DNA of 64,000 nucleotides, taken from positions 47,675,665-47,739,664 of the forward strand of contig OX419757.1 in NCBI GenBank assembly GCA_948567375.1, written 5' to 3'. Numbering within the stretch: the first letter of the stretch is position 1; each line of letters starts with the position of its first letter. Positions 1-64,000 of this stretch are shown piece by piece. The notes beneath the pieces were generated by a model. It did no database searches, was not told the origin of the DNA, and was given only the letters and a program-made list of their open reading frames with translations. The position numbers and the translations under genes were made by a program. Source of the stretch: Lunularia cruciata. Taxonomy: Eukaryota; Streptophyta; Marchantiopsida; Lunulariales; Lunulariaceae.

Positions 1-71
1 TGGATAACCAGAGGAGGATTTTCCATTTGGTGGGACCTTTAGGGAAGGTCTATACACCATAGAGAGTCTTA

Positions 72-380
72 TTAGACTTTGGTGCGCAATCCCTTATGTT
101 GAGGAAGGTTGCAGTTGTTGATCTAGAGTTGTGGAAGACCGATGTAGAGAGGTGTCCATTTCAAATCCAGAAATCTCTAAGAAGTGGTTCAACACATTAC
201 ATCACACATGGAGAGCTAGTTGTTCAGCTTCAGCCTGGTCATCCAATTGATAGCTCTGTGGTGAGAGCTCATGCCATTGCGACCATAGCTGAGTTGTATG
301 ATGTGTTAGGGGGGGAGCAAAGTTATACTCCATGGGTTTTAGTATTGATTATTGGGAGGAGGCAGCCTCTTATAGACTAG
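72..380 (+). pseudogene. Retropepsin-like aspartic protease remnant of the MT-family element
   Basis: The frame around the ATG at 96 is open upstream and reads LLDFGAQS over 72-95. That matches the retropepsin active site hD[S/T]GA, with the second position changed to Phe. The open frame runs 94 codons past the ATG, to 380. Its middle (a QLQPGHP stretch, then AHAIATIAELYDVLGG) fits the flap and the second hydrophobic strand of plant Ty3 proteases. In the family this enzyme cuts the Gag-Pol polyprotein. The altered active site and the stop at 378-380 make it inactive. The assignment rests on the DxGA motif and on its place upstream of the other pol domains. Confidence 0.55.
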
Positions 381-756
381 GTTGGGAGTCTGGTGAGGGA
401 CGAGTATGTTGCCTACCAATATGTTTCAATAGTGGCAGTCTTGGCTCACTACAGTCTGGGGCTATGGCAGCATCAATTTCAGCTTTGAGTGGTGTGGTTA
501 CTTGACCTGGTGATTTATCGGGGTGGAATGCCCATGTAGAGAATACTCTTACACCAGAGGAGATCACTCAAATTTGGAGTACAAGTGGGATTGTTCCATC
601 CACCTTGTGTGTTCCATTGTGGAGTTCAGAGGAGGCATTGCAACAATATGCAGATTGGTGCAACAGGCTTGGAGTGGAGCCTTTGTACCACCAAGAGACC
701 AGTGTGAGGATGAGCCTCCAAAGTTGATTACCTTGATATCTCAAGATACCAAACTC
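381..756 (+). other. Linker between protease and methyltransferase of MT copy 1
   Basis: No known domain is recognised. Between about 520 and 720 one frame still reads smoothly (GWNAHVENTLTPEE, then WSSEEALQQYADWCNRLGVE), which looks like the leader of the methyltransferase polypeptide. It could be part of a target-recognition or N-terminal domain. Confidence 0.35.
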
Positions 757-1690
757 ATTGCTTGGCAATGTCTATTGGAGTTGTTCGGTGGGATTATCAC
801 ATGACTAGCTATGGTACTGTAGGTGGGTATTACAAGTATAGAGGTACTTGTATGTGGAGATAGATGAGACTGCCAGGCAAGTCTCTCTCTATCATATGGC
901 ACACTTGGCCTATGTTACTACCGATGTCAGCAATCAGGGGTTACCAAAAGGCCTTACCAACATACATTTCTTTGTTGGGAGTGCATGGTCTAGAGCAACA
1001 TGGACCTATTCATTTGGTGATTTTTGGATGGCCATGCCAAGGACATACACTTGATGGCAGAGGTCTGGGTCTATAGGATCTTTGTTCTGGTGTGTTTTGG
1101 GAGATGTTACGGATACTACAACATCTCATGGTTTATCATATTGTTTCTTGAGCTTATATTTTGGAGAATGTCCCTTTGATGGGTGATTCTTGCACCCAAG
1201 TGGTGGCAAGTACACATCAGGTCTATTCTTAGATTGGACCCGCCATTTTGTTAGATGCAGCCAGAGTGAGATCACGGGCTCATTATCTTCATGTTTGGAG
1301 GACAAACCTCTTACCTAGAGAGGTTCTACAACATGCTTATCATAGGAGTCAACAATTAGACCACATCATTGTTGATGATATCTTGGATGTTGGGTGTTAG
1401 TCTTAGATAATAGTAGTGGTTGATAGGTCACCTATGGCAATGGTGAACCTAGTTGGATAGCTTAGAGCCACTTTTCCCACACTCATGAGTTTCTCAAGCT
1501 CTCATGCCTTTTGAGAGGGAGGTCCTAGATTGGTTTGGGACTCATAGTTACAGCAATTGGTGGAGCCCAATGCCAATGAGAGAGAGCAGGCAATGGGTTT
1601 TTGCACCGGTATTACTGCTATTCCAATAGTTTTAGAGGCATCAAGGCGTCAGGTGTTAGATCAGGCTATGGATCTGAATTGTTTGACCTA
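757..1690 (+). pseudogene. Cytosine-5 DNA methyltransferase domain inside the MT-family retrotransposon (broken)
   Basis: Conserved C5-methyltransferase motifs appear in the right order across three frames. Motif I (SAM binding) is LLELFGGI at about 774-797. Motif II is RYLYVEIDETAR at 842-877. Motif IV is the catalytic loop, HLVIFGWPCQGH, with the nucleophile Cys codon at 1035-1037, followed by GRGLGL. Motif VI is AYILENVP, with ENV at 1164-1172. A motif VIII-like Arg-rich stretch, ARVRSRAHYLHVWRTNLLP, lies near 1260-1310. Motif IX is EREQAMGF and motif X is RRQVLDQAMDLN, in about 1570-1685. These enzymes transfer methyl from S-adenosylmethionine to C5 of cytosine in DNA. The domain sits between retropepsin and RT in the same orientation, so it looks like part of the element's polyprotein rather than a host gene. 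A frameshift after motif I, another between motifs II and IV and at least three stops kill it. It is not obviously DNMT1-, CMT- or DRM-type; PCQ rules against DRM/DNMT3, which use PCN. Confidence 0.85.
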
Positions 1691-2021
1691 GATTGTGAGC
1701 CTTGGCTAGGTAGAGCAATGTAAGATGCGTTTGATAGGCATCACCACTCAAACACTTGTGAGCCCTGTGCCTATCAAAATGATTTAGGCAAATGCTTGAA
1801 GCAATGGACCAAGTGGACTTGGTATTCTTGGGACATAGCCAATAGCTATTAAGGAGAGTGGTCTACTTGGAGTCCATCTAGGTGAGGGTACTTGGAGTCC
1901 ATCTAGGTGAGCGTGGGCTACCTGGATTACACCATTGATCCACTTGGGATGCTGCTAGAGGACGTGTGGAGCCTGTAGCCAGAGTGGAGAGAGTTTTTCA
2001 CACTGAGGTTGGGACATCTAG
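1691..2021 (+). other. Methyltransferase-RT connector of MT copy 1, internally deleted
   Basis: The frame ends with VARVERVFHTEVGTSS at about 1970-2018. The same segment in copy 3 (LASRLEGVFHIEIGTSS on the - strand just inside the window's right edge) continues for roughly 130 more codons before the RT begins. Copy 1 has therefore lost that connector. Nothing else is recognisable here. Confidence 0.5.
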
Positions 2022-2545
2022 TGCCAACCAAGAAGGATATGCATAGCAACCAAGAAGGATGCCAACCAAGAAGGATATGCATGGCAACTACACAGATAAG
2101 CAGATGTGTGGAGATTACTGTCCTATCAATTGATAGACTACGGTTGATTGGTATACCATGCCTACACCAGAGGAGATATTTGATGCGATTGGGCATGCAA
2201 AGGTCTTTAGTACTTTGGATCTTTGAGCAAGATATCATCAATTGCTAATCAAGGAGGAGGATAAGTCCAAGATAAAATTTTGGGCTATTGATCCTCATAG
2301 CAAGGATTTGTTATATCAATGGAGGTTCTTACCATTTGGGTTAAAGAATGCTCTTGCTAAGTTCCAAAGGATCATGGATAGGATCCTAGCTGGGCTGGAT
2401 TCTGCTTGGTGCTATATTGATCACATTTTTGTCTATATCATTATTGTGGAGGAGCATGAGAGACAATTGTTGGAGGTGTTTGAGAGGTTGAGATCTCATG
2501 GACTCAAATTACATCTTGGGAAGTGTAGGTTCTTCCATGAGTAAG
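2022..2545 (+). pseudogene. Ty3/gypsy reverse transcriptase remnant, MT copy 1
   Basis: From 2059 the frame reads MPTKKDMHGNYTDKQMCGDY, the Ty3 RT fingers motif (KKDG.WR.C.DYR). It is followed by PEEIFDAIGHAKVFSTLDL, and from 2242 by WRFLPFGLKNALAKFQRIMD and CYIDHIFVY. The last is the YxDD catalytic box with the second Asp changed to His, which would inactivate the polymerase. HERQLLEVFERLRSHGLKLH and GKCRFFHE then close the RT domain. A frameshift or stop near 2225-2248 splits it. The start carries a local triplication of the 12-mer accaagaaggat between about 2028 and 2074. RT copies element RNA into DNA. Confidence 0.85.
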
Positions 2546-3201: not shown

Positions 3202-4204
3202 GACTTTCATGATGATGTCTTAGTGATGGACTATCTTTGCACTAGTGTTGTGGGTGGCACAATTGGTGCTAGTTGAGACCGTGTTCTTTGGCAAGCCAAA
3301 CGGTTCAAATTATAGGGTAAACACCTTTTTGCGTGTATGGGAGGATGGTAGAGTGCCACTTCCATCTTAGAGACTACAGTTGGTCCGTCATGCACTCATG
3401 AGGAGCTTGGACATTTTGGAGTAAAGCGTACATATAGCTTACTCTTCGAGTGATTATTGGTGGCATGGTATACGACCAATGTACAATAGTTTGTTGCTAG
3501 ATGTGTGGTTTATGACCAAGTTAGAGCATCATTCAATGCTCCTATGCCATAGTTGCACCCATTACCTATCATCGGATTAGGTTACCATTGGAGTTTAGAC
3601 TTTGCTAGACCTTTACCGTTGATTGTGAGACAATTGGTATGTTTTGGTGATGGTGGAGCACTTCTCCAAGTAGATTGGGTTGGTGGCACTTCCTGACAAG
3701 TCCAGTGAAGGGACTGGTTATTCATTCCTAGATCGGGTTCTTAGTCATTTTGGTGCACCAGCTAAGGTTTTGACTGATTAGGGTAAAGAGTTCTTGGGAG
3801 AGTTTCAGACCCTATGTGACAAGCCTTTGATTGATCATTGTACTACCTACCTTGAGGTCAATGGCTTAGCAAAGAGAGTGGTTCAGACGGTGAAGAGAGG
3901 ATTGCAAAAGTATGGTTTGAAGTGTGGCCACTTGGGAGATTGGGACCTCTAGTTACGTTGGTTGGCCATGGGCTATTGGTTCAGCCGGCAAGCCTCCTCT
4001 TCTCCTTAATTTCTACTCTATGGACAAGATCAAGATTTACCTGCAGCCATTTGTCAAGATGCTATTGTAGTTTTGGACTTGGATGATCCAAATTTATGGA
4101 TGAGTGCATGTTCTCAACGGGTAGAGATCTTTTGGAAAGTGGTGCCAATGGCTTTTGAGAACTTGGCAATTGCTCCACATAGAGATACCTTATGCTATGC
4201 CACT
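3202..4204 (+). pseudogene. Integrase remnant, MT copy 1
   Basis: Heavily frameshifted integrase. LVRHALMRSLDIL near 3380-3420 and a CxxC-like VARCVVYDQ near 3490 mark the HHCC zinc-binding end. LGYHWSLDFARPLP near 3580-3615 holds the first catalytic Asp. The stretch around 3775-3800 (TD.GKEFLGEF) holds the second, and NGLAKR at about 3860 stands where the catalytic Glu should be. The match to the better-preserved - strand copy at 31903-32160 is clear. The frame ends at NLAIAPHRDTLCYATI near 4205. Confidence 0.75.
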
Positions 4205-4509
4205 ATTCAAGGAAGAGGTTGTAACTCCGGGTTGTAACTTGAGGTAAAGTGACTTTGTGTCAAAAGATAAAGTACTCGGATTGGTCCTGCCAGCATTCAA
4301 CCTGAAGTAAGAAAACTTTGTCTTAGGATGCTCAATCAGAGGTGAGGATAGTGTAACAAATTTCCTTTTGGCTTGGATATTCAAGAAGTTACCACACACA
4401 AAAGCGGCTGGCCTATGAACGAGGGAAAGTTGACATTGACAGGAGCATGTAGAAGGTGTGATTTCTTGGTAGAAGCTCAAAGTGAAGAAAGAATGAGGAA
4501 ACATGCCAC

Positions 4510-23576: not shown

Positions 23577-23664
23577 TTTTGGTGAGCTAAGATCCCAATT
23601 CTAGAAAAAGAAGGTCAAGTGCTTGCTCTCAATGAATTCATTCCTAACATACATATTGCCGTGC

Positions 23665-24319
23665 GTATATACATTGCTACACAACATACATCGCTGTCAA
23701 CATCATACACTATAGAAGCACAACTCACACATAAGTCATACATAGACTCTAAAGTGCCACAATAATCAGATTGTTTACCACTCTCAACTCAACTCAACTC
23801 AGATTAGTACTTGATCTATTTCTCTATAAACTACCAACAACTGGATACAGATTACAATCAAGCCACACCCACTCAAGCATAGAGAATCCAAGTGACGCTT
23901 GCCGGTCTCTGTCCACCATAGCCAGGAACTTGAAGGCTCAACATCAGAGAAGTGAGCTCTCAGGAGCTGCACTTCAAAAGTATACCCCCTAGACCTGAGC
24001 TAGGTCTGAACCCTAACGGTCCTACTGATGGCACACTTGACAGTGCAAACGGTGCAAAGTGACAGTGGGCTCCACCGTAAAGTCAGTACCCCAAACATGA
24101 AATCTGACCGTCGGAAAGTAGTCTCTAAGAAACTACTGAAATAACTCCAACTACTATCACTACAACTCGAGTGTCAGAGCAATCTAGATGCAACACTAAA
24201 AATAGCATGACAATTGTCATGCGTATATACATCGCTACACAACATACATCGTTATCAACATCATACACTATAGAAGCACAACTCACACATAAGTCATACA
24301 TAGACTCTAAAGTGCCACA
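23665..24319 (-). repeat. LTR of MT-family copy 2, followed by a second LTR start
   Basis: In element orientation (- strand) the LTR begins TGTGGCACTTTAGAG at 24319, just after a purine-rich tract (AGGGAGGCAA). It runs 558 bp to 23762 with an ACTC/GAGTT-rich end. Its first 100 or so bases recur directly after it (23761 to about 23665). The same LTR-plus-start arrangement is found at 62630-63278. Related LTR sequence in the opposite orientation lies at 41480-41818 and there ends GATTACA. Confidence 0.65.
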
Positions 24320-24689
24320 ATTGCCTCCCTAGCTGGCGGTTAGGTCCCTCTAACTCCAGATAGCCATCTACTCTAAGTATATGGTTTACCCTATAATGGG
24401 CAAAGATCAGGAAGCCGGATGCCATGGAGCCCCATTGTTAGTCGCCTATTTGCAATCTATACCATATAAAGAATGAACTAGCTATAGGTCAAGTACATCT
24501 AGGACATAGCCACTGTCCATGAGGAACCACCGTGAGGGGAGGAGGCATACATGCCATATGCCATCCTCTCAAACAGCTATCACACACTAACATAGTATTA
24601 GCTCCACCAAAAGAGCCACATAACATACACCTCAAGCTTGCACGTACAAGTGCCAAGCTTGGGTCCATAGAACCATCAATGTTTGGAAG
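24320..24689 (-). mobile_element. MT-family copy 2, 3' end of the internal region (left of element I)
   Basis: - strand sequence joining the PHD finger coding end (24489) to the 3' LTR (24319). The 165 bp between the stop codon and the LTR are non-coding and end in a probable polypurine tract. The other half of this copy resumes at 31298, beyond the inserted element I. The junctions carry GGAAG (24685-24689) and AGAAG (31298-31302). Confidence 0.7.
24489..24689 (-). CDS. PHD finger at the C-terminus of the MT-family polyprotein (copy 2)
   Basis: The - strand frame entering from the element I insertion point ends at TGA 24491-24489. The last 45 residues form a complete C4HC3 PHD zinc finger: CMLC, then VCDSC, GWHMAC and WLCPRC. 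Coordinates are 24629-24495, and every zinc ligand is present with ordinary spacing (11 residues between the first two pairs, 14 before the last). PHD fingers usually bind the histone H3 tail, often by its methylation state at Lys4. The domain lies downstream of this copy's integrase (31298-32300), after a short SMDPSLALV linker, where chromoviruses carry a chromodomain. It is not part of element I: the LTR boundary is at 24690, and the upstream 54 codons of the open frame are LTR. No aromatic-cage residues can be assigned by eye beyond the conserved GWH Trp. Confidence 0.85.
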   Translation of the reverse strand, partial: LPNIDGSMDPSLALVRASLRCMLCGSFGGANTMLVCDSCLRGWHMACMPPPLTVVPHGQWLCPRCT

Positions 24690-25421
24690 TGTAATACTCC
24701 AAGGACAAGAGAAGAGAGAAAACACAGATTGCACACTCAAACATTTGATGCCCCAAGGGAGCACCTTCTCTTTATTATATAGACAAAGAGGATCTCCTCC
24801 AAGGAAGCTCCACCCTAGGATTAGGGACATAGATAGGTGACATGTCAGCAAGCTCCACCCTTGGATTACTTACTTGGATGGGTGACCTATCTAGTCTAGG
24901 TCCTATCTGGTTGGTCAAACAAGCTTTGACCGGAGGGAACCTTCCTGTAGGAATCTCAGAATCACATGAGTAAGGTACCGTTGGAAAGCTTTCGATGAGA
25001 CAAACCAGGGGGGGAGGGAAGGCCAGCCTTTCCTCTGTTGGGGGGGGAATCTACACATTTTTGAGGCCTAATTCATCCGTTTAGGTCTCCGAAATTGCCT
25101 TCAAAGATTTCAGGCATATTTCGGTTCCTACTCTATTAGTAGAAGTCCTCTTTTGGTGATACCTCTTTCTGCTCTGTTTAGTCCATCATGTGTAACATCC
25201 TTCCAGATGTTACCAAACCAATTCTCACCTTTAAATCATATGTCTAGCTATTGGTTCTAAGGTTCTCAAGTCTATTTTGGTTTGTGCCCTATTAGTAGAA
25301 GTACTCTTTTGGTGATACTTACTTCTATCTGATCTATTTTGACCATCATGTATAACATCATTCTAGATGTTACCAAACCAAATTTCACATCTAGATCATA
25401 TGGCTAACCCTTGGTATTACA
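24690..25421 (-). repeat. 3' LTR of element I
   Basis: Starts (- strand) TGTAATACCAAGGG at 25421 and ends ...AGTATTACA at 24690. It holds a TATA box (TATATAATAAAG in element sense, near 24770) shared with the other H/I LTRs. It contains both copies of the 154-bp internal repeat. Confidence 0.9.
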
Positions 25422-25437
25422 GACCTCCCTCCTTTTA
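25422..25437 (-). promoter_or_regulatory. Polypurine tract of element I
   Basis: In element sense AAAAGGAGGGAGGTC immediately precedes the 3' LTR. It is the expected primer for plus-strand DNA synthesis and is identical in element H (49674-49687). Confidence 0.8.
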
Positions 25438-25500
25438 AGACATAACGTCCTCGTTGTGCAATTGTTGCTCAAATGCTTGCACCAACACCGGTGCATGTGC

Positions 25501-28500
25501 CTAATTGGCAGCGGGTTCCCAGGTTGCTTCATAGAGGGGGTAACCTTTGCATTGTACTAGATATTCCACCCGCGGATGGCGAGTACCACGCATGCGCTTT
25601 TGGAGAATCCGCTCCACTTCATATTCCTCTATGCCATCAATGACTGTCGGACAAGGTCGAATGTCCTGTGTGGAAGTACCTTGGCCTGATCGGGGAGCAT
25701 ATTTGCATAATAGGGAGACATGGAACATTGGATGGATCTTCATGTGTGGTGGTAGCTCAAGGTGATAGGCCACAGCACCGATGCGACGAAGAATCAAGAA
25801 AGGCCCAATAAAACGACGTCTAAGCTTACGAGATCCAACTAATGTGAGGTTGGTTGTCAATAGCCACACTTGATCCCCAACATTGAACTCCATGTGCCTA
25901 TGGTGTGCATCAGCATATTGCTTTTGTCGATTTTGCGCAATTTGTAACCTGTGCTTGGCGCTCTCCACACCTTGTTGGATTCTAGAAACAAATGTGTTGA
26001 TTGCATCAACCTTGGTAGTCATTGGACGGATCTTCATCAAGCTAGAAGGTGTGAAGGGATGCTCACCATACATGAGGAAGAACGGAGTGACCTGGGTGGA
26101 GGCGTTCACTGAATTGCTGTAAGCAAATTCCACCAACGGTAGTAGGTTGTCCCACCTCTCTTGCTCTTCTAAGGTGAAGCCGCGTAACATGTCTTCAATC
26201 GTGCGATTAGCCCGCTCTGTTTGGCCATCTGTTTGTGGGTGGTAAGCTGTAGACATGGCCAACTTGGTTTTGAAGAAACCAAAGAGTGTTCGCCAAAACA
26301 AACTGGTGAATTGGGTGCTTCTATCGGTGATGAGTACTCTAGACAAGCCATGGTGAGCAAAGACTGCATCTAAGTATAGTTGAGCTAGTTGTGGAGCGGT
26401 CACCTCCTTGGTGGTAGGGCGTACATGAATCACTTTGCTGAGCCGGTCCACAAAGACCACAATGGAGTCAAACCCTGAGGTGGTCTTGGGTAATTCACAG
26501 ACGAGATCCATACTCACTTGTTCCCAACGTTGGGTAGGAGTGGGAAGAGGTTGAAGGAGCCCTGCAGGAGCTTGATTAGAAGCTTTGTTCTGTTGACAAA
26601 GTAGGCAGCTACGCACATAGTCCATCACGTTGTTGCTCATCTTGGGCCAATAGTAATGGCGATTAACTGCCTCCAAGGTCTTGTCTACTCCGACATGAGC
26701 TGAAATGGCCGAATCATGACATTCCGCTAGAATAGTGGTGCGTAATTCTGGGACATTTGGGATCCACAATCTGCTCTCTCGAAAGGTGAGTCCTTGGGTG
26801 CTGGTGACACCTTTGGACAATTGCGCTTCTACAATCTGTGGATCAGTTTTTGTAGCAGCTAGAATCTCTTGCCAGAATTCAGGGTTAATCTTAACCTCTG
26901 CCACCAAGTTGTTGGCCATTGGCATGCGGGTGAATGCATCTGCAAGTTGCTTCTTACCTTCCACGTAGGTGATTGTCATGTTGAAGCGTTGTCGCCACTC
27001 TGCCCACCAAATTTGGCGACGAGATAGATCCTTCTGCGTCTCGAGGTAGACTAGAGGTTTGTGGTCTATCTCTACTACAAATGCCTTCTCGCCCAGGTAG
27101 TGCTTCCAATGCTTGGTTGCTAGAACGATGGCCAGCTCTTCTCGTTCTATGGTGTGGTAGTTGCGCTCTGCCGGTAACAACTTTTGAGAGAAATATGCAA
27201 TTGGATGCTATCCGTCATGCCATTCTTGTTGTAGGACTGCTCCTATTGCTACACCTGATGCATCCGTAGCCAACTTGATTGGACGTTTTGGGTCATACCA
27301 CTTCAAGATTGGTGCATGTAGCAAGGCGGCCTTCAATTCTTGAAAGGCCAACTCTTGTGCAGTTCCCCATGTCCACTTCTTCTCCTTGCCAAGTAGTGCC
27401 GTTAAAGGCTGTGCAACCTTAGAGAAGTCCTTGACAAATCTATAATAGAATCCCGTCAACCCCAAGAAGCTTTTAAGTTGAGTCTGATCTTCTGGGGCAC
27501 TCCATTTTTGAATGACCTCTATTTTATCTGTTAATACTTGAATGCCCTCTGCACTTACTCTATGCCCTAAGTAGTCTACTTCAGACTTGCCAAACTCACA
27601 CTTTGAGATTTTGGCATACAACTGATTCTGTCTTAGAATCTGGAAGACCTCTCGTAGATGTTGTTTGTGTTCTGTCATCGTGCTACTATATACTAAGATA
27701 TCATCCAAGAAGACGATAACAGACTTATCTAAGTATGGACGAAATATGTCATTCATTAGGCTCATGAAAGTGGCAGGCGCATTGGTGAGGCCAAAAGGCA
27801 TCACAAGATACTCAAAGTGGCCATACCTGGTTCGAAAGGCAGTTTTGTACACATCCTCCTTTGCAATTCGGATTTGATTGTAACCGCTCCGCAAGTCCAG
27901 TTTGGTGAAGTATCTCACTCCATGGAGTTGATCAAATAGGTCATCCATGCAAGGTAAGGGGTATTTGTTCTTCACTATTTGCTGATTGAGACCCCGATAG
28001 TCAATGCACATGCGCATTGTACCATCCTTCTTCTTCACAAACAAGACAAGGGCCCCATATGGTGATATGCTAGGTTGGATGAACCCTTTCTGTAGCATCT
28101 CCTCAATTTGAGTCTTACACTCCTCCAACTCATGAGGTGATAGGCGATATGGGGCCTTACAAGGAGGTGTCTTCCCCGGGAGTGTCTCTATTTTGTGATC
28201 TACTTGCCTTTTAGGTGGTAATCCTGAGGGTAGATCATTGGGAAAGACATCTTGAAACTCATCCACCACATCCTTCAATTTCTCAGGAATTTGTCCAGCG
28301 AGTTGTGCACTCTGGACTTCTCTTATTAGATCCATAAAACATCTATCGGTCTTACAGACAGTTGTCATCCCTACGACATATAGAGGCAGTTTCTGCCTGT
28401 GTGATTTTTCTTTAACCCCAATGATTGACCATTGGTGGGTTCTCACTACTTTCTTCCTCCAATCCACCATTGGGTTGTACTGCTCCATCCATGGCATGCC

Positions 28501-28764
28501 TAAAATTGCATCATAACGGGCTAACTGTATCACTCGCCACTCAATTGCTTCCTTATATTCTCCTACAGAGAGGGTTACCCGTCTAGGTAATGATTCAATC
28601 CTCTCTGTTTGCCCATTTCGTAACTCTACTTCTTCACTTCCATCTCTCTCTAGATCTATTCCCAAGCTTATTGCAACAGAGCGAGACAAGAAATTCTCTG
28701 TTGCTCTCGGATCTATTAATACTCTCACTTGATTACCTTCTAGGATACCATTCACGACAATCAA
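25501..28764 (-). pseudogene. Pol polyprotein of element I (one internal stop)
   Basis: A single - strand frame of about 1,088 codons. It is broken by TAG at 27210-27208 (TGG in H) and ends early at TAG 25503-25501 (TTG in H). The frame is open before 28764 and has no ATG there, as expected if Pol is made by frameshifting from Gag. Order: retropepsin ([10 protein letters not shown], where H has DPGA, so the active-site Gly is Arg); RT with [30 protein letters not shown] and FLDD; RNase H (ATDASG, IDHKPL); integrase HHCC (CLLCQQN) and DDE core (SMDLV, ITDRSTQF, QTDGQTERANR; Gly is Ser in DRS); GPY/F module (FIGPF); chromodomain (EYEVERILQKR, KGYPLYEATWEP). Confidence 0.92.
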
Positions 28765-28934
28765 TTGTGAGGTTGCCTTTCAGGATCTTTGCGCATTATT
28801 CTTCTTCCTTCCCTCGCTTCTCTGCTTCCTTATTGAGCTAGTAAGGCCGCAAGGTACATTTACTGGCGATCTTTGTTTTTTGAAGTGGTTTCCACCTCCT
28901 CCTCTTCAATGTGCCTCTCCATGTTGTTCAAAGA

Positions 28935-29948
28935 TCACCTGTACAAAGGCCGAGGGCCTCTAGGGAAATGAGTGCAACAATTGGTAGATATGTGCCCAAT
29001 ACGGCCACAATTGTAACAACAACGTTGTTCTCCTCGAGTCCCTTCTCCTCGTGGGACTCCATCTCTTTGTTCTTCTACCCGTCCCCGCTCTCCTTGAAGT
29101 GGCCGTGCTCCTTGATCCCGGAATTGAAGGTTGCCCAATTCCATCGGTACTGGTCCACCCATGTGTGGCATTTTTGCCCAATAATGTTGAGGTGGAACTA
29201 CTCCTTCACCTCCACCTAATGTTCCGGCTATTCTCTGCGCACAAGCAATAGCTTCAAATACCGTGCAAGGGTTTTGCACCATGACTTCTTGGCGAATCCG
29301 CTCTTTCAACCCTCGTTTGAAATTGTCGAGAGCCTCTGCTGGACTCATGTCGGTAATTGCAACTTGTAGATCCAAAAATGCCTCCACATACTCTTGTACG
29401 CTATTCTTCTGTCTCAATCCCCATAGTCGGGTTTGAGCCATCTACACAGAATCCACCGATTGGAAATTCTTGAGCAGTCCTTCTTGCATTGCTGTCCATG
29501 TGACCTCCCTTCTCTCTGCCAGCATGGATCGTTCCCAAGCCTCATACCATGTGAGGGCTTTATCGGTCAAGTACCCACATGCAAACACGCCTGCAGCATG
29601 CTCTGTGATCTCTGTTGAGAACAATCAAAAATATCGATTCATTCTCGAGATCCAATTCTCCATTACTCCCATTGTACGCTGCCTCTTGTAAGGCTCGATG
29701 TTGCAGGTCTTCTTCATCCGGAGTAGCAATGTGGCTTCATTGTTGATAGAGTTCGTAGGCACGGGTGCCTCTCCAAGTACTTCAGTCGCAGGTATTGGGT
29801 TTTGAGACGGCTCTTCTTCTTGCATGGCTTGATCATTCCTGAGGATCCGCACTTGACTTTGCAATGTCTCCATGGTCATCTTAATCTCTCAAAATTCATT
29901 CAACATCCCTTGCATTCCTTGCACCAGCTCTTGCAACTGCGGATCCAT
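28935..29948 (-). pseudogene. Gag of element I (two internal stops)
   Basis: ATG at 29948-29946 (MDPQLQELVQGMQGM). One frame with TGA just before 29624 and TAG just before 29441, ending near 28935. It holds the Retrotrans_gag-type core (NIEPYKRQRTM, WISRMNRYF, ALTWYEAWERSM, VQEYVEAFLDLQVAIT) and a CCHC zinc knuckle (CYNCGRIGHISTNC), the usual nucleic-acid-binding end of Gag. The first stop is in the same codon position in element H. The second is CAG in H. Confidence 0.88.
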
Positions 29949-29981
29949 GGTTCCTGCAACACCCAATTGCTAACGTCTACT

Positions 29982-30185
29982 TCAATACAGAGTCAATATA
30001 ATCACTCTGGAAGGCGCACGAACTATCGGAACTACCATTGGGACCTCAGAAGCTATCACTCGTTGATAATACTCCTCACCAAAATTCCTAACCACAAAAT
30101 CTCTAAACATCAATTTTGGCCTCACTACATAACGGATTTCTACTTGAGTGTTGAAAGGGAGAGGATTTGGGACATTCATATCCAT
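29982..30185 (-). CDS. Short leader protein 2 of element I
   Basis: 67 codons from an ATG (30185) between the primer site and gag. Contains RYVVRPKLMFRDF, FGEEYYQRVIASE and VPIVRAPSRVIILTLY. The 65 residues shared with element H (44924-45121) are identical, although gag and pol of the two elements differ at many positions. It is related in pattern to leader protein 1 and to the short leader ORF of element J. Function unknown; no transmembrane segment or Cys. Confidence 0.6.
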   Translation of the reverse strand: MDMNVPNPLPFNTQVEIRYVVRPKLMFRDFVVRNFGEEYYQRVIASEVPMVVPIVRAPSRVIILTLY

Positions 30186-30189
30186 ATTA

Positions 30190-30411
30190 TCATAATAGAA
30201 TGTAGATCGTCAAATCCCACTCTCTGTCATATATCACCACAGGTAGAATCACCGGGTTTGGTGAGTTCATCACTCTGTCCATGAATTCCGCACCAAAGTG
30301 AGAAACTAGCGATACTCTCATCTGCTCACGCTGGATGTACATAACCTTGATGTGGAATGGGTTTGAGAATGGAAAGCTAGGTGCGGGAAATTGTCCCCCC
30401 GGTGCATCCAT
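30190..30411 (-). CDS. Short leader protein 1 of element I
   Basis: 73 codons from an ATG (30411), ending at 30190 just before leader protein 2. MDAPGGQFPAPSFPF opens a Pro-rich start; KVMYIQREQMRV, FGAEFMDRVMNSPNP and VVIYDREWDLTIYILL follow. Six of 73 residues differ from the element H version. It looks like a tandem paralogue of leader protein 2: V..RY/MYI, then FG.E, then NP/VP...VV. Function unknown. Confidence 0.6.
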   Translation of the reverse strand: MDAPGGQFPAPSFPFSNPFHIKVMYIQREQMRVSLVSHFGAEFMDRVMNSPNPVILPVVIYDREWDLTIYILL

Positions 30412-30538
30412 CCCATCCGCTCTCTAAAGTCCTTCCTAAGTCTAGCGATTACTCTATGTTCTCCACCTCAAATTACTCAATTTCAGTAGTTCGTGCTATT
30501 CCAAGAGGGGTGATCCACTCTCTTGGACTAGAACACTC

Positions 30539-30550
30539 GCTCTGATACCA
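30539..30550 (-). promoter_or_regulatory. Primer-binding site of element I (tRNA-iMet)
   Basis: TGGTATCAGAGC in element sense, one base inside the 5' LTR. It is complementary to the 3' end of plant initiator tRNA-Met, the commonest primer of plant LTR retrotransposons. Confidence 0.9.
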
Positions 30551-30551
30551 T

Positions 30552-31297
30552 TGTAAAACTCCGAGGACAAGAGAAGAGAGAAAACACAGATTGCACACTC
30601 AAACATTCGATGCCCCAAGGGAACACCTTCTCTTTATTATATAGACAAAGAGGATCTCCTCCAAGGAAGCTCCACCCTAGGATTAGGGACACAGATAGGT
30701 GACATGTCAGCAAGCTCCACCCTTGGATTACTTACTTGGATGGGTGACCTGTCTGGTCTAGGTCCTATCTGGTTGGTCAAACGAGCTTTGACCAGAGGGA
30801 ATCTTTTAGGGAATCTTCCTGTAGGAATCTCAGAATCACATGAGTAAGGTACCGTTGGAAAGCTCTCGACGAGACAAACCAGGGGGGAGGAAAGGCCAGC
30901 CTTTCCTATGTTGGGGGGGGGGGAATCTGCACATTTTTGAGGCCTAATTCATCCGTTTAGGCCTCCGAAATTGCCTTCAAAGATTTCAAGCATATTTCGG
31001 TTCCTACTCTATTAGTAGAAGTCCTCTTTTGGTGATACCTCTTTCTGATCTGTTTAGTCCATCATGTGTAACATCCTTCTAGATGTTACCAAACCAATTC
31101 TCACCTTTAAATCATATGTCTAGCTATTGGTTCTAAGGTTCTCAAGTCTATTTCGGTTTGTGCCCTATTAGTAGAAGTACTCTTTTGGTGATACTTACTT
31201 CTATCTGATCTATTTTGACCATCATGTATAACATCATTCTAGATGTTACCAAACCAAATTTCACATCTAGATCATATGGCTAACCCTTGGTATTACA
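30552..31297 (-). repeat. 5' LTR of element I
   Basis: 746 bp, TGTAATACC...TTACA in element sense (the last bases read TTTTACA). Nearly the same as the 3' LTR, with scattered substitutions. The TATA box CTATATAATAAAG lies near 30640 (element sense), about 100 bp before the LTR end. Confidence 0.9.
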
Positions 31298-32709
31298 AGA
31301 AGGTGGCATGGCGCACAATTGCGCACATGATCCTTCTAAACAACACCATCACGTCCTTCTAACACAAGGACTCTAGATGGCAAAACCTCACGCACTCTCA
31401 AGATAGTGCAGCTTGTTGATACGTCAAGTGTCGTTGGTGTTGTCTGCTATAGATATACATAGTCGCTTGGATGAAATCAACAGATCAAGGGTCTATAACC
31501 TCCTCCTCAAATGGTAGCATAGCGTAAAGTATCTCTATGTTGAGCAATTGCCAAGTTCTTAAAAGCAATCGACATCACTCTCCAAAAGATCTCTGCCCAT
31601 TGAGAACATGCACTCATCCATACATCAAGGTCATCCAAGTCCAAAACTACATTAGCATCTCGATGAATGGCTATAGGTAAATCTAGATCTCATCCATAGA
31701 GTAGAAAGTACGGAGAGAAGGATGCTAAGGAGGCTTGCCGGCTGAACTGATAGCCCATGGCCTACCAAGGTAACTGGAGATCCCAATCTCCCAAGTGGCC
31801 TCTCTCCAAACCATACTTTTGCAATCCTCTCTTCACAGTCTGAACCACTCTCTGCTAAGCCATCTGCCTCAGGGTGATCTCAAAATGTAGTATGATGATC
31901 AATCAAAGCCTTGTCACACAAGACTTGAAACTACCCCAAGAACTCTGTACCCTGATCAAAACCTTAGCTGGTGCACCAAAATGACTAAGAACTTGATCCG
32001 GGAACGAGTAAGTTGTCCCTTCACTAGACTTGTCAGGAAGTGCCACCAACTCAATCCACTTGGAGAGGTGCTCCACCATCACTAAAACATAGCAATGATG
32101 TCTCATAGTCAATGGTAAAGGTCCAATGAAGTCCAAACTCCAACGGTAACCCAATCCCATGATAGGTAATGGGTGTAACTATGGCGTAGGAGCATTGAAT
32201 GATGCTCTAACTCGGTCACAAACCACACATCTAGCAACAAACTGCTATTACTTGGTCTGCATACCACGCCACCAATAATGACTTTGGAGTAAGCTATACG
32301 TACACTTTACTCCAAAATGTCCTAGCTCCTCATGAGCATGATCGACCAACTATGGTCTCTGAGATGGAAGTGGTACTACTTGCACTCTACCATCCTCCCA
32401 TACACGCAAAAGGTGTCTACCCTCCAATCTGAACCGTTTGGCTTGTTGAAGAACATGGTCTCTTTCCTTGGCCCCAACTGTGCCACCCACAACACCAATG
32501 CAAAGATAGTCCATCACTAAGACATCATCATGAATGTCTTGCTAAACTGTACTAATATCTTCACTCTCTGGATCTATGACCTCAATAACTCCTCCTGTAT
32601 GCACTGAGAGAGATACCACCAAAGCCTCTGAAAATATACACAAAAAGGCCGATGCTTGCTAACTTGGCACCATCTCCTCATCTGTCTCACCATGCCAACG
32701 TTGTCATCG
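31298..32709 (-). pseudogene. MT-family copy 2: RNase H tail and integrase (right of element I)
   Basis: On the - strand, from about 32700 down, the frame reads the RNase H end and spacer (GMARQTDEEMV, VVSLSVHTGG), then integrase. ELGHFGVKCTYSLLQSHYWW and FVARCVVCDRVRASF give the HHCC finger. LGYRWSLDFIGPLPLTMR and VEHLSKWIELVALPDKSSEG (32160-32080) hold the first Asp and core strands; HFGAPAKVL follows. Pieces continue to LFRRIMCAIVRHAT at the insertion point. It is broken by many stops. It matches MT copy 1 at 3100-4200 and leads, across element I, into the PHD finger. Confidence 0.8.
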
Positions 32710-33049
32710 GGAAAATAGCCCACGTGTACCCTTGAGGCTTTTGGTGTGATAAATTTTCTTTTTCTCTTCTAGTTGTTGTAAGGAACATGGATTTATGTCA
32801 ATATGTCTTAGGTGTAGTTTTATGCTACCTTGCTATAGGAGATATTTCCTATATTATTGTGAAGCCAAAAAAAGTTATGGTGTTATTAGCTCAAGGAGTC
32901 TTTTAATGTGGCTTGAGCCAAGAAATCATGTTGGGTTATACTAGCTCAGGTTCTGTTTTACGTTATTGGAATGAAAGAGTATTTGCCTTAGAGGAGGAGC
33001 AAAAAGGAGTCTTGGAGTTGGAAATACTGGGGAGGCTTTAGAGGAGTTG
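32710..33049. other. Spacer before the 106-bp tandem repeat
   Basis: AT-rich; the homology to MT-family integrase ends at about 32710. No gene seen. Confidence 0.4.
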
Positions 33050-33685
33050 TGACAATGAAAGGCTTGGGGGAAGAGAAAATTTTTGCAAGGACTGTTAGGG
33101 CTTGATAGTGCAGGGGAAAAAAAGGGTTTTCTCTCTAAAGGAATGAACAATGTGCAGGAGAGGAAGTGTTGGGAAAAAAGAGCAATTTTCGCAGGGACTG
33201 TTAGTGCTTGAGAGTGCAAGGGAGAAAAAGAGTTTTCTCTCAAAGGAATGAACAATGTGCAGGAGAGGAAGTGCTTGGACAGGAGAGTGCAATTTTCACA
33301 TGGACTGTTAGGGCTTGAGAGTGCAGGGGAGAAAAAGGGTTTTCTCTCAAAGGAATGAACAATGTGCAGGAGCGGAAGTGCTTGGACATGAGAGTACAAT
33401 TTTCACAAGGACTGTTAGGGCTTGAGAGTGCAAGGGAGATAAAGGGTTTTCTCTCAAAGGAATGAACAATGTGCAGGAGAGGAAGTGCTTGGACAGGAGA
33501 GTGCAATTTTTGCAAGCACTGTTAAGGCTTGAGAGTGTAGAGGAGAGAAAGGTTTTCTCTCAAAGGAATGAACAATGTGCAAGAGAGGAAGTGCTGGGAC
33601 AGAAGAGCAATTTTTGTAGGGACTGTTAGTGCTTGAGAGTGCAGGGGAGAGAAAAGGTTTTCTCTCAAAGGAATGAACAACGTGC
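33050..33685 (+). repeat. Tandem repeat of about 106 bp, six units
   Basis: The block GGAATGAACAATGTGCAGGA recurs with its GAATG at 33141, 33246, 33353, 33460, 33566 and 33671 (periods 105, 107, 107, 106 and 105). Each unit also has GGACTGTTAGGGCTTGAGAG and GGGTTTTCTCTCAAA. Units differ by substitutions and 1-2 bp indels, and the period is not a multiple of three, so it is a minisatellite and not a coding repeat. The last unit is cut by the 5' LTR of element J. Confidence 0.9.
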
Positions 33686-41479: not shown

Positions 41480-42715
41480 GTACTGACTTCACAGTGGGGC
41501 CCATTGTCACTTTGCACCATTTGCACCTTCGAGTGTGCCGTCAACAGGACCGTTAGGGTTCAGACCTAGCTTGAGTCCTGGGATTATACTTTCAAAGTGC
41601 AACTCCAAAGAGCTCACTTCTCTGATGTTGAGCCTTCAAGTTCTTGGCTATGGTGGACATAGGCCGGCAAGCGTCACCTAGATTCTCTATGCTTGAGTGG
41701 GTGTGGCTTGACTGTAATCATTGCCCAATTGTTGGCAGTTTATAGAGTGACAGATCAAGTACTGATCTGAATTGAGTTGAGTTGAGTTGAGTTGAGAGTG
41801 GTAGCCAATCTGATTACATTAGAGAAGTGAACTCAAGGGGAAATCGAGTGCAGGAACTTTGAGTGTTGGTGGTATCTCCAAGCTTGGTGGATCATTGGTA
41901 GCTCGATTCAAGTTCAATTTTTCTCTAGTGTGCAGAAGCTTGTTCAATAGATGCAGATTTGGTAGTAAGGCAGACGGTGTGCGGAAGCACTGGCCAATTT
42001 TTGAGCAAAGAAGAAGCAAATTTTGAACAGTGGTTGTGATTTTGAGCTCAAGAGGTGAAGGCAAGACCAATTTGTTGCGAGTGGGGCTCATAAAGTCAAA
42101 TTGAAGGTGGAGTTGGGAAGCTATTCTCATGAATTTGTGATTTCAAGAAACCTATGTTGTCAATTTGGCTTGAGTGGAAAGTAAGCGGGGGATTTGGCAG
42201 ATAGCCAACTTTAGGGTTTACGTTAGATTTTGCTTGGATTTTACATCAGATTTTTGCCAGATTTGGAGGACTTTTGCTAGTTTGGAGGACTTTTGCAAGT
42301 TTGGAGAAGTTTTGCCAATTTTGGAGGAGGTTTGAAGTGGCAAGAAGAAAGGCCTCATTTGCCTCAAGAGGCTTCAAGGCATAGGGCTGTGGGCTATGAG
42401 AGGCTACAAAGGGCCAGCTTGCTGGCGTGAGGCTAGCTAGTTTAGAATAGATCTTGGTCATTGGTTGGCAAAATCTGCCTTTCCTACTAGATTGTGCGCA
42501 ATAAGGTTTGATCCCTAGATCTCTTGTTCCTAGATTGGTGCCCTAGCAAACTAGTCCACCCTCACTTGTTGTCCTACTAACTGTGCCACTGTTATCTATA
42601 CACATGTAGCTTTGGCTAGGAGAGGCAGTATGATCCCATTCTTGGTGATCCTGGTAGCTTAGGACTTAGATACACTTCTCTTATGTCAAATGCTAAATGG
42701 TGGCAAAGTCAGTCC
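41480..42715 (+). mobile_element. MT-family LTR (3' part) and leader, + strand
   Basis: 41480-41818 is the reverse complement of the LTR body at 23780-24120: blocks CACTTTGCACC, GACCGTTAGGGTTCAGACC, GAGTTGAGTTGAGTTGAGAG. It ends GATTACA at 41818. The following 900 bp should be the 5' leader of an MT-family element. No primer-binding site or gag is recognisable, and frames are short. The left end is cut by element J, the right end by the solo LTR at 42716. Confidence 0.6.
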
Positions 42716-43407
42716 TGTGAGCCGGCCTGTCTCTCACTCAGGATGAACCTCTGATGGTTATTATGGTAGCGCACCATGGACTAAGAAGGCAAGGAACCCG
42801 AACTCCATCATACTCCTCCAAGGCTAACACTCCAAGACTCAAGACATTGCTCACTAGAGAACTCAATGAGAGAGAGATAGTTGTAAATGAAAGGATGATG
42901 AGTACCTCCTCACCCCTTGTTTATATACTTGTGAAATAGTTATGTACCAAAGTTACTAATTACCGTAGTAACTCAAGTTACTAGACTAAAAGTCAAGTAA
43001 AGTCAAAAAGTAGAAAGGAATATCCATTCACATGGGCATATTCCCCTAAGCATGTGATCTTATCTTGACCCAACCACTAAGTCAATGATTCCTTCACATG
43101 GGCTATCCTTGGACTAAAGAAGAATCCAAAACAAAAAGGCTTGCGGGCCCAAGAGTTCTCAACTCTTTCCTCAAAGCCAAACACCTAGGAATAATACCAA
43201 GTCAACACACTAAAATCCAAAATAGTGGTGCTCATCTTTTCTACTTCCTCTAAAGTAAGGTCCCCTCTATCTTAGCTATGACTAACTTTAGCTAACCATG
43301 ACTAATATAGAACCATCCTTTATCACTATATAAATAATACCTCTTAAGTACTTGTAATACCAAGCTAAATATCACAATACCATACACATGCACAAATGAG
43401 TATTACA
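42716..43407 (-). mobile_element. Second solo LTR of the J type
   Basis: 692 bp, opposite orientation to J, ends TGTGAGCCGG...TATTACA on the + strand. Flanks GTCC (42712-42715) and GTCT (43408-43411), a 4-bp duplication with one mismatch. Very close in sequence to the solo LTR at 13248-13939. Confidence 0.9.
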
Positions 43408-43799
43408 GTCTCGTGTTGTTTTATGAGATGGAGGGTTTTTGTTTAGATTTCTTGTGATTAGACCCCCTTCATTCTTTGCTTCCTATTTGTGCACCACATT
43501 TGTGTAAGAAGTCTTGACTTTTGAGCGTTAGTGCTTTGGTGTGCTGTTGGTAGTGAGGTTGGAGTGATGACCAATAAGACTACCTTTGTTTCTCTCCGGT
43601 GAGGCAAGAAGTGATGATCTGCAAACCATGAGAGTGCATGTTATGATGGCAGGTTACAGTTTGCCCTTTCCCCTAGTATAGTTATCTTAGTTAGAGTTAC
43701 ATTAGTGGGTGATGCTTAGTTGGTATTGGCACGTGGTGGTGTTGGCACTTGGTGGGGTACTTGCGGTTGTGACTTGCGGTTGTAGTTGTGGTTACTTTG
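43408..43799. other. Spacer between solo LTR and element H
   Basis: 392 bp, G/T-rich toward its right end (TTGCGGTTGTGACTTGCGG). No gene seen. Weak similarity to 19700-19760 around GATGACCAA and TGTTATGATGGCA. Confidence 0.4.
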
Positions 43800-46246: not shown

Positions 46247-46344
46247 TAAATGTACCTCGCGGCCTTACTGGCTCAATAAGGAAGCAGAGAAGCGAGGGAA
46301 GGAAGAAGAATAATGCACAAAGATCCCGAAAGGCAACCTCACAA

Positions 46345-49674: not shown

Positions 49675-49687
49675 AAGGAGGGAGGTC
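49674..49687 (+). promoter_or_regulatory. Polypurine tract of element H
   Basis: AAAAGGAGGGAGGTC overlaps the pol stop codon and abuts the 3' LTR. Confidence 0.85.
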
Positions 49688-62629: not shown

Positions 62630-63278
62630 ATATACATACTATCAATATTATATATTAAAGAAGTATAATTCACGCATAAATTATACACAATGCCAATGGG
62701 GATTCTAAAGTGCCACAATAATCAATTTGTTCATATAACTCGAATCACAATCAGATCAGTATTTAATCTATCATTCAATAATCTCTTAATAATTATACTT
62801 TGATTATAGTCAAATCATACACATTCTAGCTAAGAAAATATAATTGATGTTCACCGGCCTCTATCCACCATAGTCAAGAACTCGGAGGCTCAACATTAGA
62901 GAAGTGAACTCTCTAGAGCTGCACTTCAAAAGTATACCCTCTTGGTCTCCAACCCTAATGGTTTCACTGATGGCACACCCGACTGTGCAAATGGTGCAAG
63001 TGATGGTGGGCCCCACCATATAGTTAGTACCCTAAACACAAAATCTGACTGTCAACAAGTAGTCTATGTGTAAATATCAAAATACTCCTAACTACCAAAA
63101 TACTACTAATTACCAAAAATACTACTCTTGAGTCCGAGCAATCTAAGTGGAACGCTACAAATGGCATGATAATTATCATATGTATATATATCATTATATA
63201 ACATACATCATTGTCAACATCACACACTCTAGAAGCACAACTCACACATAAGTCATACATGGACTCCAAAGTGCCACA
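62630..63278 (-). repeat. LTR of MT-family copy 3, with LTR-start duplicate
   Basis: In element orientation the LTR begins TGTGGCACTTTGGAG at 63278. It runs 561 bp to an LTR-start duplicate at 62717, going on to about 62630. Blocks CACTTGCACCATTTGCAC and AGCTCTAGAGAGTTCAC match the LTR at 23665-24319. It is AT-enriched relative to that copy, so it is older. Confidence 0.65.
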
Positions 63279-64000
63279 ATTGCCCCCCCTAGCTGGTGGT
63301 TAGGTCCCTCTAACTCTAGATAGCCATCTACGCCAAATATATGGTATACCTTATGGGATTAGCAGGCCGGGGTGCTATCGAGCCCCATCATTAGTTGCTG
63401 GTAAGATCCAAAGTACTAAAGACCTTTGCATGACCAATTGCATCAAAGATCTCCTTTGGTATGGGCATGGCATGTCGATCAGCCCTAGTCTATCAATTGA
63501 TAGGATAGTAATCTCCACACATCCGCTTATCTGTGTAGTTGCCATGCATATCCTTCTTGGTTGGCATCATTGTAGTTGATACATTGTCTCCATGTGAAAT
63601 CTCCACCAAACCAACCTCAAAAATGTCTCTACTCCGGCTTTGAATCAATGCTCTCTCCATGTCACTATATTGATAGGGACATCAAAAAATTGGTTTATCA
63701 CTAGTCAACTCAATCTAAATACTAGGTCCTTTTAGAGCACCTAAATCCTTCATATTGAAAGCAAAACAACTCATGTAGCTCCTCAAAAACCTCCAAACTC
63801 TCTGTCATTCCTCTTTTATAAGCTTGGGTCAAAGATCTGGCTTCCAAGTATCCTCTATAACTAATGTAAGAGTGGAAGACGCACTAATTGGCTGCTACAT
63901 TGGGCCCTTGGGAATAGTAATATCATGCTCCCAACCACTAGAGGTCCCAATTTCAATGTGAAAAACTCCCTCTAATCTGGATGCAAGCTCTATATGTCCT
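63279..64000 (-). pseudogene. MT-family copy 3: connector and RT start, internally deleted
   Basis: On the - strand, entering from the right edge: LASRLEGVFHIEIGTSS (as at 1970-2018 in copy 1), WEHDITIPKGPM-like sequence, a VFEELHELF connector (about 63820), DMERALIQSRSRDIFEVGLV and RT start MPTKKDMHGNYTDKRMCGDY (about 63570-63510), then IFDAIGHAKVFSTLDL to 63406. RT then breaks off into the 3' non-coding part (63279-63405), which matches 24320-24420. The rest of RT, RNase H, integrase and PHD finger are deleted. Several stops. The methyltransferase, if kept, lies beyond 64000. Confidence 0.75.

What the first reader, a model, noticed from the sequence alone, without database searches (positions are those of the whole stretch)
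757..1690. A cytosine-5 DNA methyltransferase built into a Ty3/gypsy retrotransposon
Seen: C5-methyltransferase motifs I, II, IV (WPCQ, Cys codon 1035-1037), VI (ENV, 1164-1172), VIII, IX and X occur in order between a retropepsin and a Ty3 RT, all on the + strand. Known: PCQ and ENV are catalytic motifs of this enzyme family. As I recall, capture of such enzymes by LTR retrotransposons has been reported in charophyte algae and dinoflagellates; I know of no land-plant case. Inferred: the element methylated DNA itself, perhaps to hide its new copies or protect its cDNA. The copy is dead, but the family is repeated in the window.
Basis: partly seen in the sequence, partly recalled or inferred. 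Interest (0 to 1): 0.92.

Follow-up and report, generated by a model that had tools for sequence, protein, structure and literature searches.

The report
Liverwort jumping genes carrying DNA methyltransferases
A large family of retrotransposons in a liverwort carries its own DNMT3-type DNA-methylating enzyme, kept intact by selection and built into the coat-protein side of the element, so a mobile element holds a copy of the enzyme class that hosts use to silence such elements.

Summary
Window 764-1742 (+) encodes a decayed cytosine-5 methyltransferase (MTase) between protease and reverse transcriptase of a Ty3/gypsy-type element. It is no chance insertion. The host is the liverwort Lunularia cruciata (plastid matK 100% identical over 81% of the query); an MTase 30-mer has 1279 exact hits in its genome. 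The 121 MTase copies scored are 96-100% identical to the query; 78 have no stop. Family layout: A - [gag-protease-MTase] - UAG - [RT-RNase H-integrase-PHD finger] - B-A-B. The UAG is in frame and in the plant-virus readthrough context UAG-CAR-YYA in 20 of 20 fetched copies, so the MTase should be made at Gag level, RT only by readthrough. Variants shared by copies show purifying selection on the MTase as on the protease (pN/pS 0.26). Sequence and fold place it nearest DNMT3. Relatives occur in Marchantia, Sphagnum and unnamed sequences. The closest published case is KnitGypsy-Dnmt3 of a charophyte, with the same A-coding-B-A-B ends. My searches found no land-plant case in print. New variant of a known kind; activity and purpose untested.

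The parts
3..763 (+). Decayed ORF1 before the MTase: protease region and linker; the element's left part lies outside the window
   Evidence: tblastn ORF1 aa 740-843 at 3-314 and 843-1050 at 311-913; Asp_protease_2 before the MTase in homologues P0047 and P0050
764..1742 (+). Decayed DNMT3-like cytosine-5 methyltransferase (frame change near 900-913, in-frame stops)
   Evidence: 83.6% nt identity to the open MTase of L010; protein homologues to E 9.2e-50
1035..1037 (+). Catalytic Cys codon (TGC) of motif IV
   Evidence: Cys in 52 of 52 ungapped of 54 MTase domains
1164..1172 (+). Motif VI ENV (GAG AAT GTC)
   Evidence: Glu in 54 of 54 domains
1743..2031 (+). C-terminal tail of ORF1; the stretch with the ORF1 stop is missing in this copy (2023/2058)
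   Evidence: ORF1 aa 1371-1418 at 1888-2031; L010 5518 to 5886 missing
2059..2541 (+). Reverse transcriptase piece (ORF2 aa 110-270)
   Evidence: 82.6% aa identity
2545..3630 (+). RNase H and start of integrase (ORF2 aa 339-703)
   Evidence: 70.3% aa identity; domains by Pfam in L014 ORF2
3326..4219 (+). Integrase, second frame (ORF2 aa 600-906); the copy ends here in the window
   Evidence: 58.4% aa identity
31299..32701 (-). Second fragment of the family: ORF2 aa 504-972
   Evidence: 92.7% nt to L010
23660..24689 (-). 3' end of the family: PHD finger end and B-A-B terminal repeats; in element coordinates it continues the 31299-32701 fragment (L010 8472/8475)
63403..64000 (-). Third fragment: ORF1 end, TAG at 63895-63897, RT start
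41480..41786 (+). Fragment of terminal repeat A
   Evidence: 91.2% nt to L010 9071-9377
43406..43793 (+). Fragment of the 5' region with the start of ORF1
   Evidence: 89.7% nt; ORF1 aa 1-21
62704..63398 (-). Fragment of a 3' end (76% identity)

Best explanation
The window holds a dead copy of a large family of Ty3/gypsy-type retrotransposons of the liverwort Lunularia cruciata that carries a DNMT3-type cytosine-5 methyltransferase as a regular, selected domain. Shown by sequence: ORF1 encodes gag, protease and MTase; ORF2 encodes RT, RNase H, DDE integrase and a PHD finger; one in-frame UAG in a readthrough context separates them; the ends are A ... B-A-B, with 4-bp target-site duplications. 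Inferred: the leaky UAG makes much Gag-protease-MTase and little RT-integrase, so every particle holds many MTase copies. Inferred, most likely: the MTase methylates the element's own double-stranded cDNA in the particle or at insertion. A new copy would then arrive already marked like host DNA, which protects it or keeps it quiet in the haploid plant while other copies stay active. The PHD finger probably guides integration by reading histone H3.
For: Host: matK identical to Lunularia. Abundance: 1279 exact hits of an MTase 30-mer, 0 in the reversed control; 121 MTase copies scored of 13,522 first-look candidates, all at 96-100% identity, 78 without a stop by my count of the table. MTase before ORF2 on the same strand in 20 of 20 fetched copies. 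UAG-CAR-YYA in 20 of 20; 96 of the 100 junction places listed have TAG (my count); the motif is type I readthrough in PMC5382211 (passages). Of 20 homologues with the MTase as only detected domain, 16 end 67-129 aa after it (table, my reading). Selection: shared MTase variants pN/pS 0.26, singletons 0.91 (Fisher p=0.0025). Cys in 52 of 52, Glu in 54 of 54 domains. DNMT3A is the best solved relative by sequence (E 2.5e-10); the 50 fold matches listed are all DNMT3A/3B/3C. MTase and RT distances correlate (r=0.89). 4-bp TSDs in 5 of 5 readable copies; the two A repeats differ at 3-11 of about 450 sites in six copies.
Against: No activity, expression or methylation data. KnitGypsy-Dnmt3 showed no de novo methylation in yeast (inconclusive). 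CpG observed/expected is 0.42-0.47 in 19 of 20 copies (L015, a partial locus, 0.64), but another LTR family in the window has 0.48-0.51 and other window stretches 0.13-0.68, so there is no special scar of self-methylation. C-to-T decay at CG and CHG fits ordinary host methylation. The 20 copies are those with the longest open frames, which favours intact ones; even so 8 of 18 have a stop in the MTase. Readthrough was not measured. Copies without MTase were not counted: the RT-side searches did not complete, and only 55 of 97 junction places have an exact MTase 30-mer upstream.
Confidence: 0.6

Rival explanations
1. The MTase acts on the host: it rides in with the integrase complex and methylates the target site or host silencing genes, and the PHD finger aims it at chosen chromatin.
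For: The same element carries a DNMT3-type catalytic domain and a PHD finger, and animal DNMT3 also pairs its catalytic domain with a PHD-like histone reader (recalled). A PHD was found in 21 of the 26 homologues with an integrase hit (table, my count).
Against: MTase and PHD lie on opposite sides of the UAG, so most MTase molecules would lack the PHD. Nothing was tested.
Confidence: 0.17
2. The MTase methylates RNA (genomic RNA or primer tRNA) to help packaging or priming, as proposed for the LINE-borne enzymes.
For: It lies on the Gag side, where homologues have RNA-binding zinc knuckles (weak Pfam hits). De Mendoza et al. raise RNA methylation for SymbioLINE-Dnmt. The gypsy-type enzyme showed no activity on DNA in yeast.
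Against: Nearest solved relatives are the DNA enzymes DNMT3A/3B; the DNMT2 type is far weaker (E 0.033 against 2.5e-10).
Confidence: 0.15
3. The MTase serves as a brake: self-methylation limits copy number and spares the host, and so favours the element only through the host.
For: Suggested in the 2018 paper's discussion. Decay at CG and CHG suggests that inserted copies are methylated.
Against: The family has more than a thousand recognisable places in the genome, so any brake is weak.
Confidence: 0.15
4. A host MTase pseudogene inserted by chance into one element copy.
For: The window copy alone could be read so.
Against: 20 of 20 fetched copies have the MTase before ORF2, and relatives with RT and MTase in one protein exist in Marchantia and unnamed sequences.
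Confidence: 0.01

Closest known systems
KnitGypsy-Dnmt3 of Klebsormidium nitens (de Mendoza et al. 2018, PMC5890265)
   Same: Dnmt3-type MTase in an LTR Gypsy element; A-coding-B-A-B repeats with Gypsy domains; purifying selection on the MTase
   Different: Published MTase is in the Pol polyprotein ORF; here it is in ORF1 with gag and protease, before a leaky UAG. Here the host is a land plant with over a thousand recognisable places; the paper says K. nitens has fewer copies than Symbiodinium. Its sequence was not in hand, so common descent is untested
SymbioDIRS-Dnmt3 and SymbioLINE-Dnmt of Symbiodinium
   Same: Retrotransposon-borne C5-MTases under purifying selection; the DIRS type has the same A-coding-B-A-B ends
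   Different: Those use a tyrosine recombinase or are LINEs; this has a DDE integrase and 4-bp TSDs
Vertebrate DNMT3A/DNMT3B
   Same: Nearest solved sequence and fold; motifs I, IV, VI, VIII, X in unrearranged order
   Different: 19-24% identity over the fold alignments listed; no histone reader found on the same ORF
Ty3/Gypsy bursts reported in Lunularia cruciata (PMC9985172)
   Same: Same species, same superfamily (passages)
   Different: Its main text contains no word beginning with 'methyltransferase'; whether its burst families include this one was not checked

Membership tests
Ty3/gypsy LTR retrotransposon | Order gag-protease-RT-RNase H-integrase | tested here: met
   Protease passes its cut-off in homologues P0047 and P0050, gag and CCHC hits below cut-off; ORF2 has RVT_1, RT_RNaseH, H2C2, rve in that order. 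No RT tree with named gypsy clades was made
Ty3/gypsy LTR retrotransposon | Two identical long terminal repeats, one at each end | tested here: not met
   A without B at the 5' end in 6 of 7 copies (L034 gave no A); B-A-B at the 3' end in 17 of 20. It works like a gypsy element but has split repeats, as does KnitGypsy-Dnmt3
Ty3/gypsy LTR retrotransposon | DDE integrase with short target-site duplication | tested here: met
   rve domain; 4-bp TSD in 5 of 5 readable copies
DIRS-like element | Tyrosine recombinase | tested here: not met
   No such Pfam hit in the ORF stretches scanned; DDE integrase instead
DNMT3-type cytosine-5 methyltransferase | Best similarity to DNMT3 among C5-MTases, motifs in unrearranged order | tested here: met
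   DNMT3A E 2.5e-10; HaeIII 5e-4; DRM2 0.016; tRNA (DNMT2-type) 0.033; HhaI 0.036; the 50 listed fold matches all DNMT3
DNMT3-type cytosine-5 methyltransferase | Catalytic Cys (motif IV) and Glu (motif VI) | tested here: met
   52 of 52 ungapped and 54 of 54 domains
DNMT3-type cytosine-5 methyltransferase | De novo methylation of DNA | not testable with these tools
   No assay data
DNMT3-type cytosine-5 methyltransferase | Groups with eukaryotic DNMT3 in a tree with DNMT1, CMT, DRM, DNMT2 | not tested
   Only a DNMT3A fragment was used as outgroup
KnitGypsy-Dnmt3 | Dnmt3 domain + Gypsy domains + A-coding-B-A-B repeats | tested here: met
   against the paper's text and legend
KnitGypsy-Dnmt3 | MTase within the Pol polyprotein ORF | tested here: not met
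   MTase is in ORF1, before the UAG, in 20 of 20 fetched copies

The most novel reading that the evidence does not exclude
A DNMT3 was captured once by a PHD-bearing gypsy lineage before land plants arose. In bryophytes the MTase was moved to the Gag side of a plant-virus-type leaky stop, which turned a rare Pol enzyme into an abundant particle component, and elements of this form took part in the Ty3/gypsy bursts that enlarged the Lunularia genome. A transposon then writes the very mark that plants use against transposons, at Gag dose.
Probability: 0.3. Interest if true: 0.88.

Novelty: new variant of a known kind. Interest (0 to 1): 0.74.

Why it matters
Transposons are expected to escape DNA methylation, not to carry the enzyme. 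[quoted passage not shown] a liverwort with more than a thousand recognisable places, and named relatives in Marchantia and Sphagnum, shows that bryophytes have them. The Gag-side place gives a testable idea of dose and site of action, and Marchantia polymorpha, a laboratory model, encodes the same proteins under the label 'hypothetical protein'. So the question of what a retrotransposon gains from a methyltransferase can be studied in a laboratory plant.

Tried and rejected
Pfam on the dead window copy is too weak to decide (E 0.013); open copies and homologues decided it. CpG depletion as a scar of self-methylation: no clear difference from another LTR family in the window. My first guess of a moss host (note) was wrong; matK gave Lunularia. 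Relatives of P0054 in IMG/VR: none. Chance insertion of a pseudogene: rejected. Klebsormidium: no named hit, and the last protein search went to matK, so no tree with KnitGypsy-Dnmt3 was made. Count of MTase-less copies: neither the RT protein nor the RT 30-mer search was ever answered. On contig C1, 55 of 97 junction places (the 100 listed less the last three, which lie beyond the listed MTase range) have an exact MTase 30-mer 539-565 nt upstream; the other 42 are undecided, because one mismatch hides a copy. AlphaFold model of P0030: mean pLDDT only 54; the MTase part is the better part. Rows dropped: MTase counts used 18 of 20 copies (L015 partial, L020 split), RT 19 of 20 (L010 frameshift), RNase H 17, integrase and PHD 14 of 19; codons with several changes and stops were left out of pN/pS. 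RT/MTase congruence used the 25 rows with both domains of sufficient length, of 54 MTase rows.

Full report
What was checked. The MTase of the window runs 764-1742 and is dead: it changes frame near 900-913 and has stops. PF00145 gives only E=0.013 on this copy, but a 165-residue piece finds 26 proteins with E of 1.2e-16 or better.

Host. The window lies in a 565.8-Mb assembly whose contig C74 carries a plastid matK identical to that of Lunularia cruciata over 81% of the query; the next seven named entries have 74-80%. A size given for this species is 565.6 Mbp (PMC12885004, passages). So the host is a land plant, a complex thalloid liverwort.

Abundance and intactness. PF00145 gives 123 scored matches in the genome, mostly over profile positions 48-120; a few of the 123 are probably host genes. 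With the MTase protein as query, 121 places were scored of 13,522 first-look candidates; all 121 are 96-100% identical over 330-331 residues, and 78 have no stop by my count. The tool scores only the best candidates, so these are the copies closest to the query and the number is a lower bound. An MTase 30-mer with one free base has 1279 exact hits, and the loose pattern across the end of ORF1 has 1162; both reversed controls give 0.

Anatomy. I fetched 20 stretches of up to 9.8 kb around the 20 of 123 places with the longest open frames, hence biased to intact copies. In 20 of 20 the MTase precedes ORF2 on the same strand. ORF1 is open over 1428 codons in two of them. ORF2 carries RT, RNase H, integrase zinc finger, integrase core and a C-terminal PHD finger in the open copies scanned, L013 and L014, and in two pieces of L011; a stretch of L010 read in one frame gave no hit, because of a frameshift. 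In 20 of 20 ORF1 ends in TAG, in frame with the start of ORF2, followed by CAG and then CCA, CTA or TCA. UAG followed by CARYYA is the type I readthrough signal of tobamoviruses and others (PMC5382211, passages). In the looser pattern the 100 listed places have TAG 96 times, TAA twice, TTG and GAG once each (my count); the stricter TAG-CAG form has 986 hits. The fragment at the right window edge also keeps TAG CAG CCA. Of the 20 homologues in which the MTase is the only domain detected, 16 end 67-129 residues after it (table, my reading), as in Lunularia (98). Some of these ends may be gene-model or contig ends, but they suggest that the split after the MTase is old in bryophytes. Readthrough itself is inferred.

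Ends. The 3' end is B(105)-A(449)-B(105) in 17 of 20 copies; L009 is cut by the locus end, and L017 and L025 show only the first B. At the 5' end, 6 of 7 flanks looked at have A with no B before it; in L034 no A was found. A perfect 4-bp duplication flanks 5 of 5 readable copies; L019 ends in a tandem and is not readable. The two A repeats of a copy differ at 3 to 11 of about 450 sites, gaps aside, in six copies. So the element has DIRS-like split repeats but inserts with a DDE integrase. De Mendoza et al. describe this for KnitGypsy-Dnmt3: repeats as in DIRS, domain composition typical of Gypsy (PMC5890265, section 9).

What the enzyme is. By sequence the nearest solved proteins are DNMT3A (E 2.5e-10) and DNMT3B, well before HaeIII, DRM2, DNMT2 and HhaI; none of the 54 matches at E<=1 is named DNMT1 or CMT. 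A model of the homologue P0030 is reasonable only in part, the MTase included, and its 50 listed PDB matches are all DNMT3A, 3B or 3C. In 54 MTase domains (50 database proteins and 4 Lunularia copies) the Cys is kept in 52 of 52 without a gap, and Glu in 54 of 54.

Selection. Among 18 copies the MTase has dN/dS 0.39, and 8 of 18 have a stop in it. Variants seen in one copy have pN/pS 0.91 (62 nonsynonymous, 22 synonymous), as expected of decay after insertion. Variants shared by copies have 0.26 (18 and 22), like the protease stretch (0.26) and RT (0.22); the difference between shared and single variants in the MTase is significant (p=0.0025). On smaller counts the shared values are 0.14 for RNase H, 0.49 for integrase and 0.30 for PHD. 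Shared variants may include recurrent mutation, and the choice of copies favours open frames. Of singleton changes in the protease and MTase stretch, 144 of 205 are C to T or G to A, with rates per site of 0.020 at CG, 0.014 at CHG and 0.003 at CHH, so the inserted copies are probably CG- and CHG-methylated.

Relatives. The MTase search scored 7990 candidates (those sharing most words) and found 55 at E<=1: 14 named Marchantia polymorpha (61-75% identity), one Sphagnum fallax (49%), the rest unnamed; one search also names Sphagnum troendelagicum (57%). Three layouts occur: gag-protease-MTase as a separate protein (bryophytes and unnamed); RT-RNase H-MTase-integrase-PHD (13 complete, unnamed); MTase-RT-RNase H-integrase-PHD (3, unnamed). 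MTase and RT pairwise distances of 25 rows (22 database proteins, 3 Lunularia copies) correlate at r=0.89 (0 of 2000 permutations), and both trees hold the bryophyte rows and the three MTase-first rows apart; much of the rest is unresolved. So the MTase has mostly travelled with its RT. Whether it was captured once and shuffled within the polyprotein, or several times, is open.

How it most likely works. Shown: MTase kept, catalytic residues kept, place on the Gag side, recent amplification. Inferred: readthrough ratio, packaging, action on cDNA. I favour methylation of the element's own DNA, with host-chromatin action, RNA methylation and a self-brake as rivals; these overlap, so the odds do not sum to one. 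Against: the gypsy-type enzyme of Klebsormidium showed no activity in yeast, inconclusively (section 10), and CpG depletion is not special to this family.

Print. I searched for retrotransposon DNMTs with Klebsormidium, gymnosperm, fern, land plants, Marchantia, liverwort and bryophyte, and for Lunularia with retrotransposon. Judged by listings, starts of abstracts and the passages read, none reports a MTase-bearing retrotransposon in a land plant. Searches listed only 20 of 491 and 15 of 157 papers, only open-licence papers are held, and no supplements were read. PMC12344493 (passages) mentions DNMT3 within retrotransposons of streptophytes, citing the 2018 paper. PMC9985172 (passages) reports Ty3/Gypsy bursts in Lunularia and has no word beginning with 'methyltransferase' in its main text. 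So the kind is known; the land-plant host, the Gag-side place before a leaky stop and the copy number appear new.

Noticed in passing
L014 8851-9512, L011 8906-9567 and 15 further loci: Split terminal repeats A ... B-A-B with a DDE integrase and 4-bp TSDs; the B-A junction in L014 reads CGACA-GC-TGTCACG, like the two element ends joined with two extra bases. How reverse transcription makes such a linear element is unclear.
   Followed up: partly
L014 ORF2 residues 992-1036: PHD finger at the C-terminus of the integrase ORF, where chromoviruses have a chromodomain (recalled); also in 21 of 26 homologues with an integrase hit. One paper search listed nothing on it in plant gypsy integrases.
   Followed up: partly
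MTase domains (rows not named there): In 17 of 52 ungapped MTase domains the residue before the catalytic Cys is Glu (ECQ, ECK, ECN) instead of Pro.
   Followed up: no
window 25320-29762 and 45347-49789: Inverted pair of a second gypsy-like element, 96% complementary over 4.4 kb, RT about 36% identical to the MTase family; no MTase found in it. The minus-strand copy appears to split the MTase-family copy at 23660-32701.
   Followed up: partly
window 38284-40341: A third gypsy-like RT, 32% identical to this family's, in a region with CpG observed/expected of only 0.13.
   Followed up: no
window 33031-33685: Tandem repeat with about 107-bp period; no match to the MTase element there in blastn.
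   Followed up: no
L031 (plastid contig C74), start of the matK match near 1500: The matK profile match includes two stops before the open frame of 454 codons; a truncated start, editing or an assembly matter.
   Followed up: no
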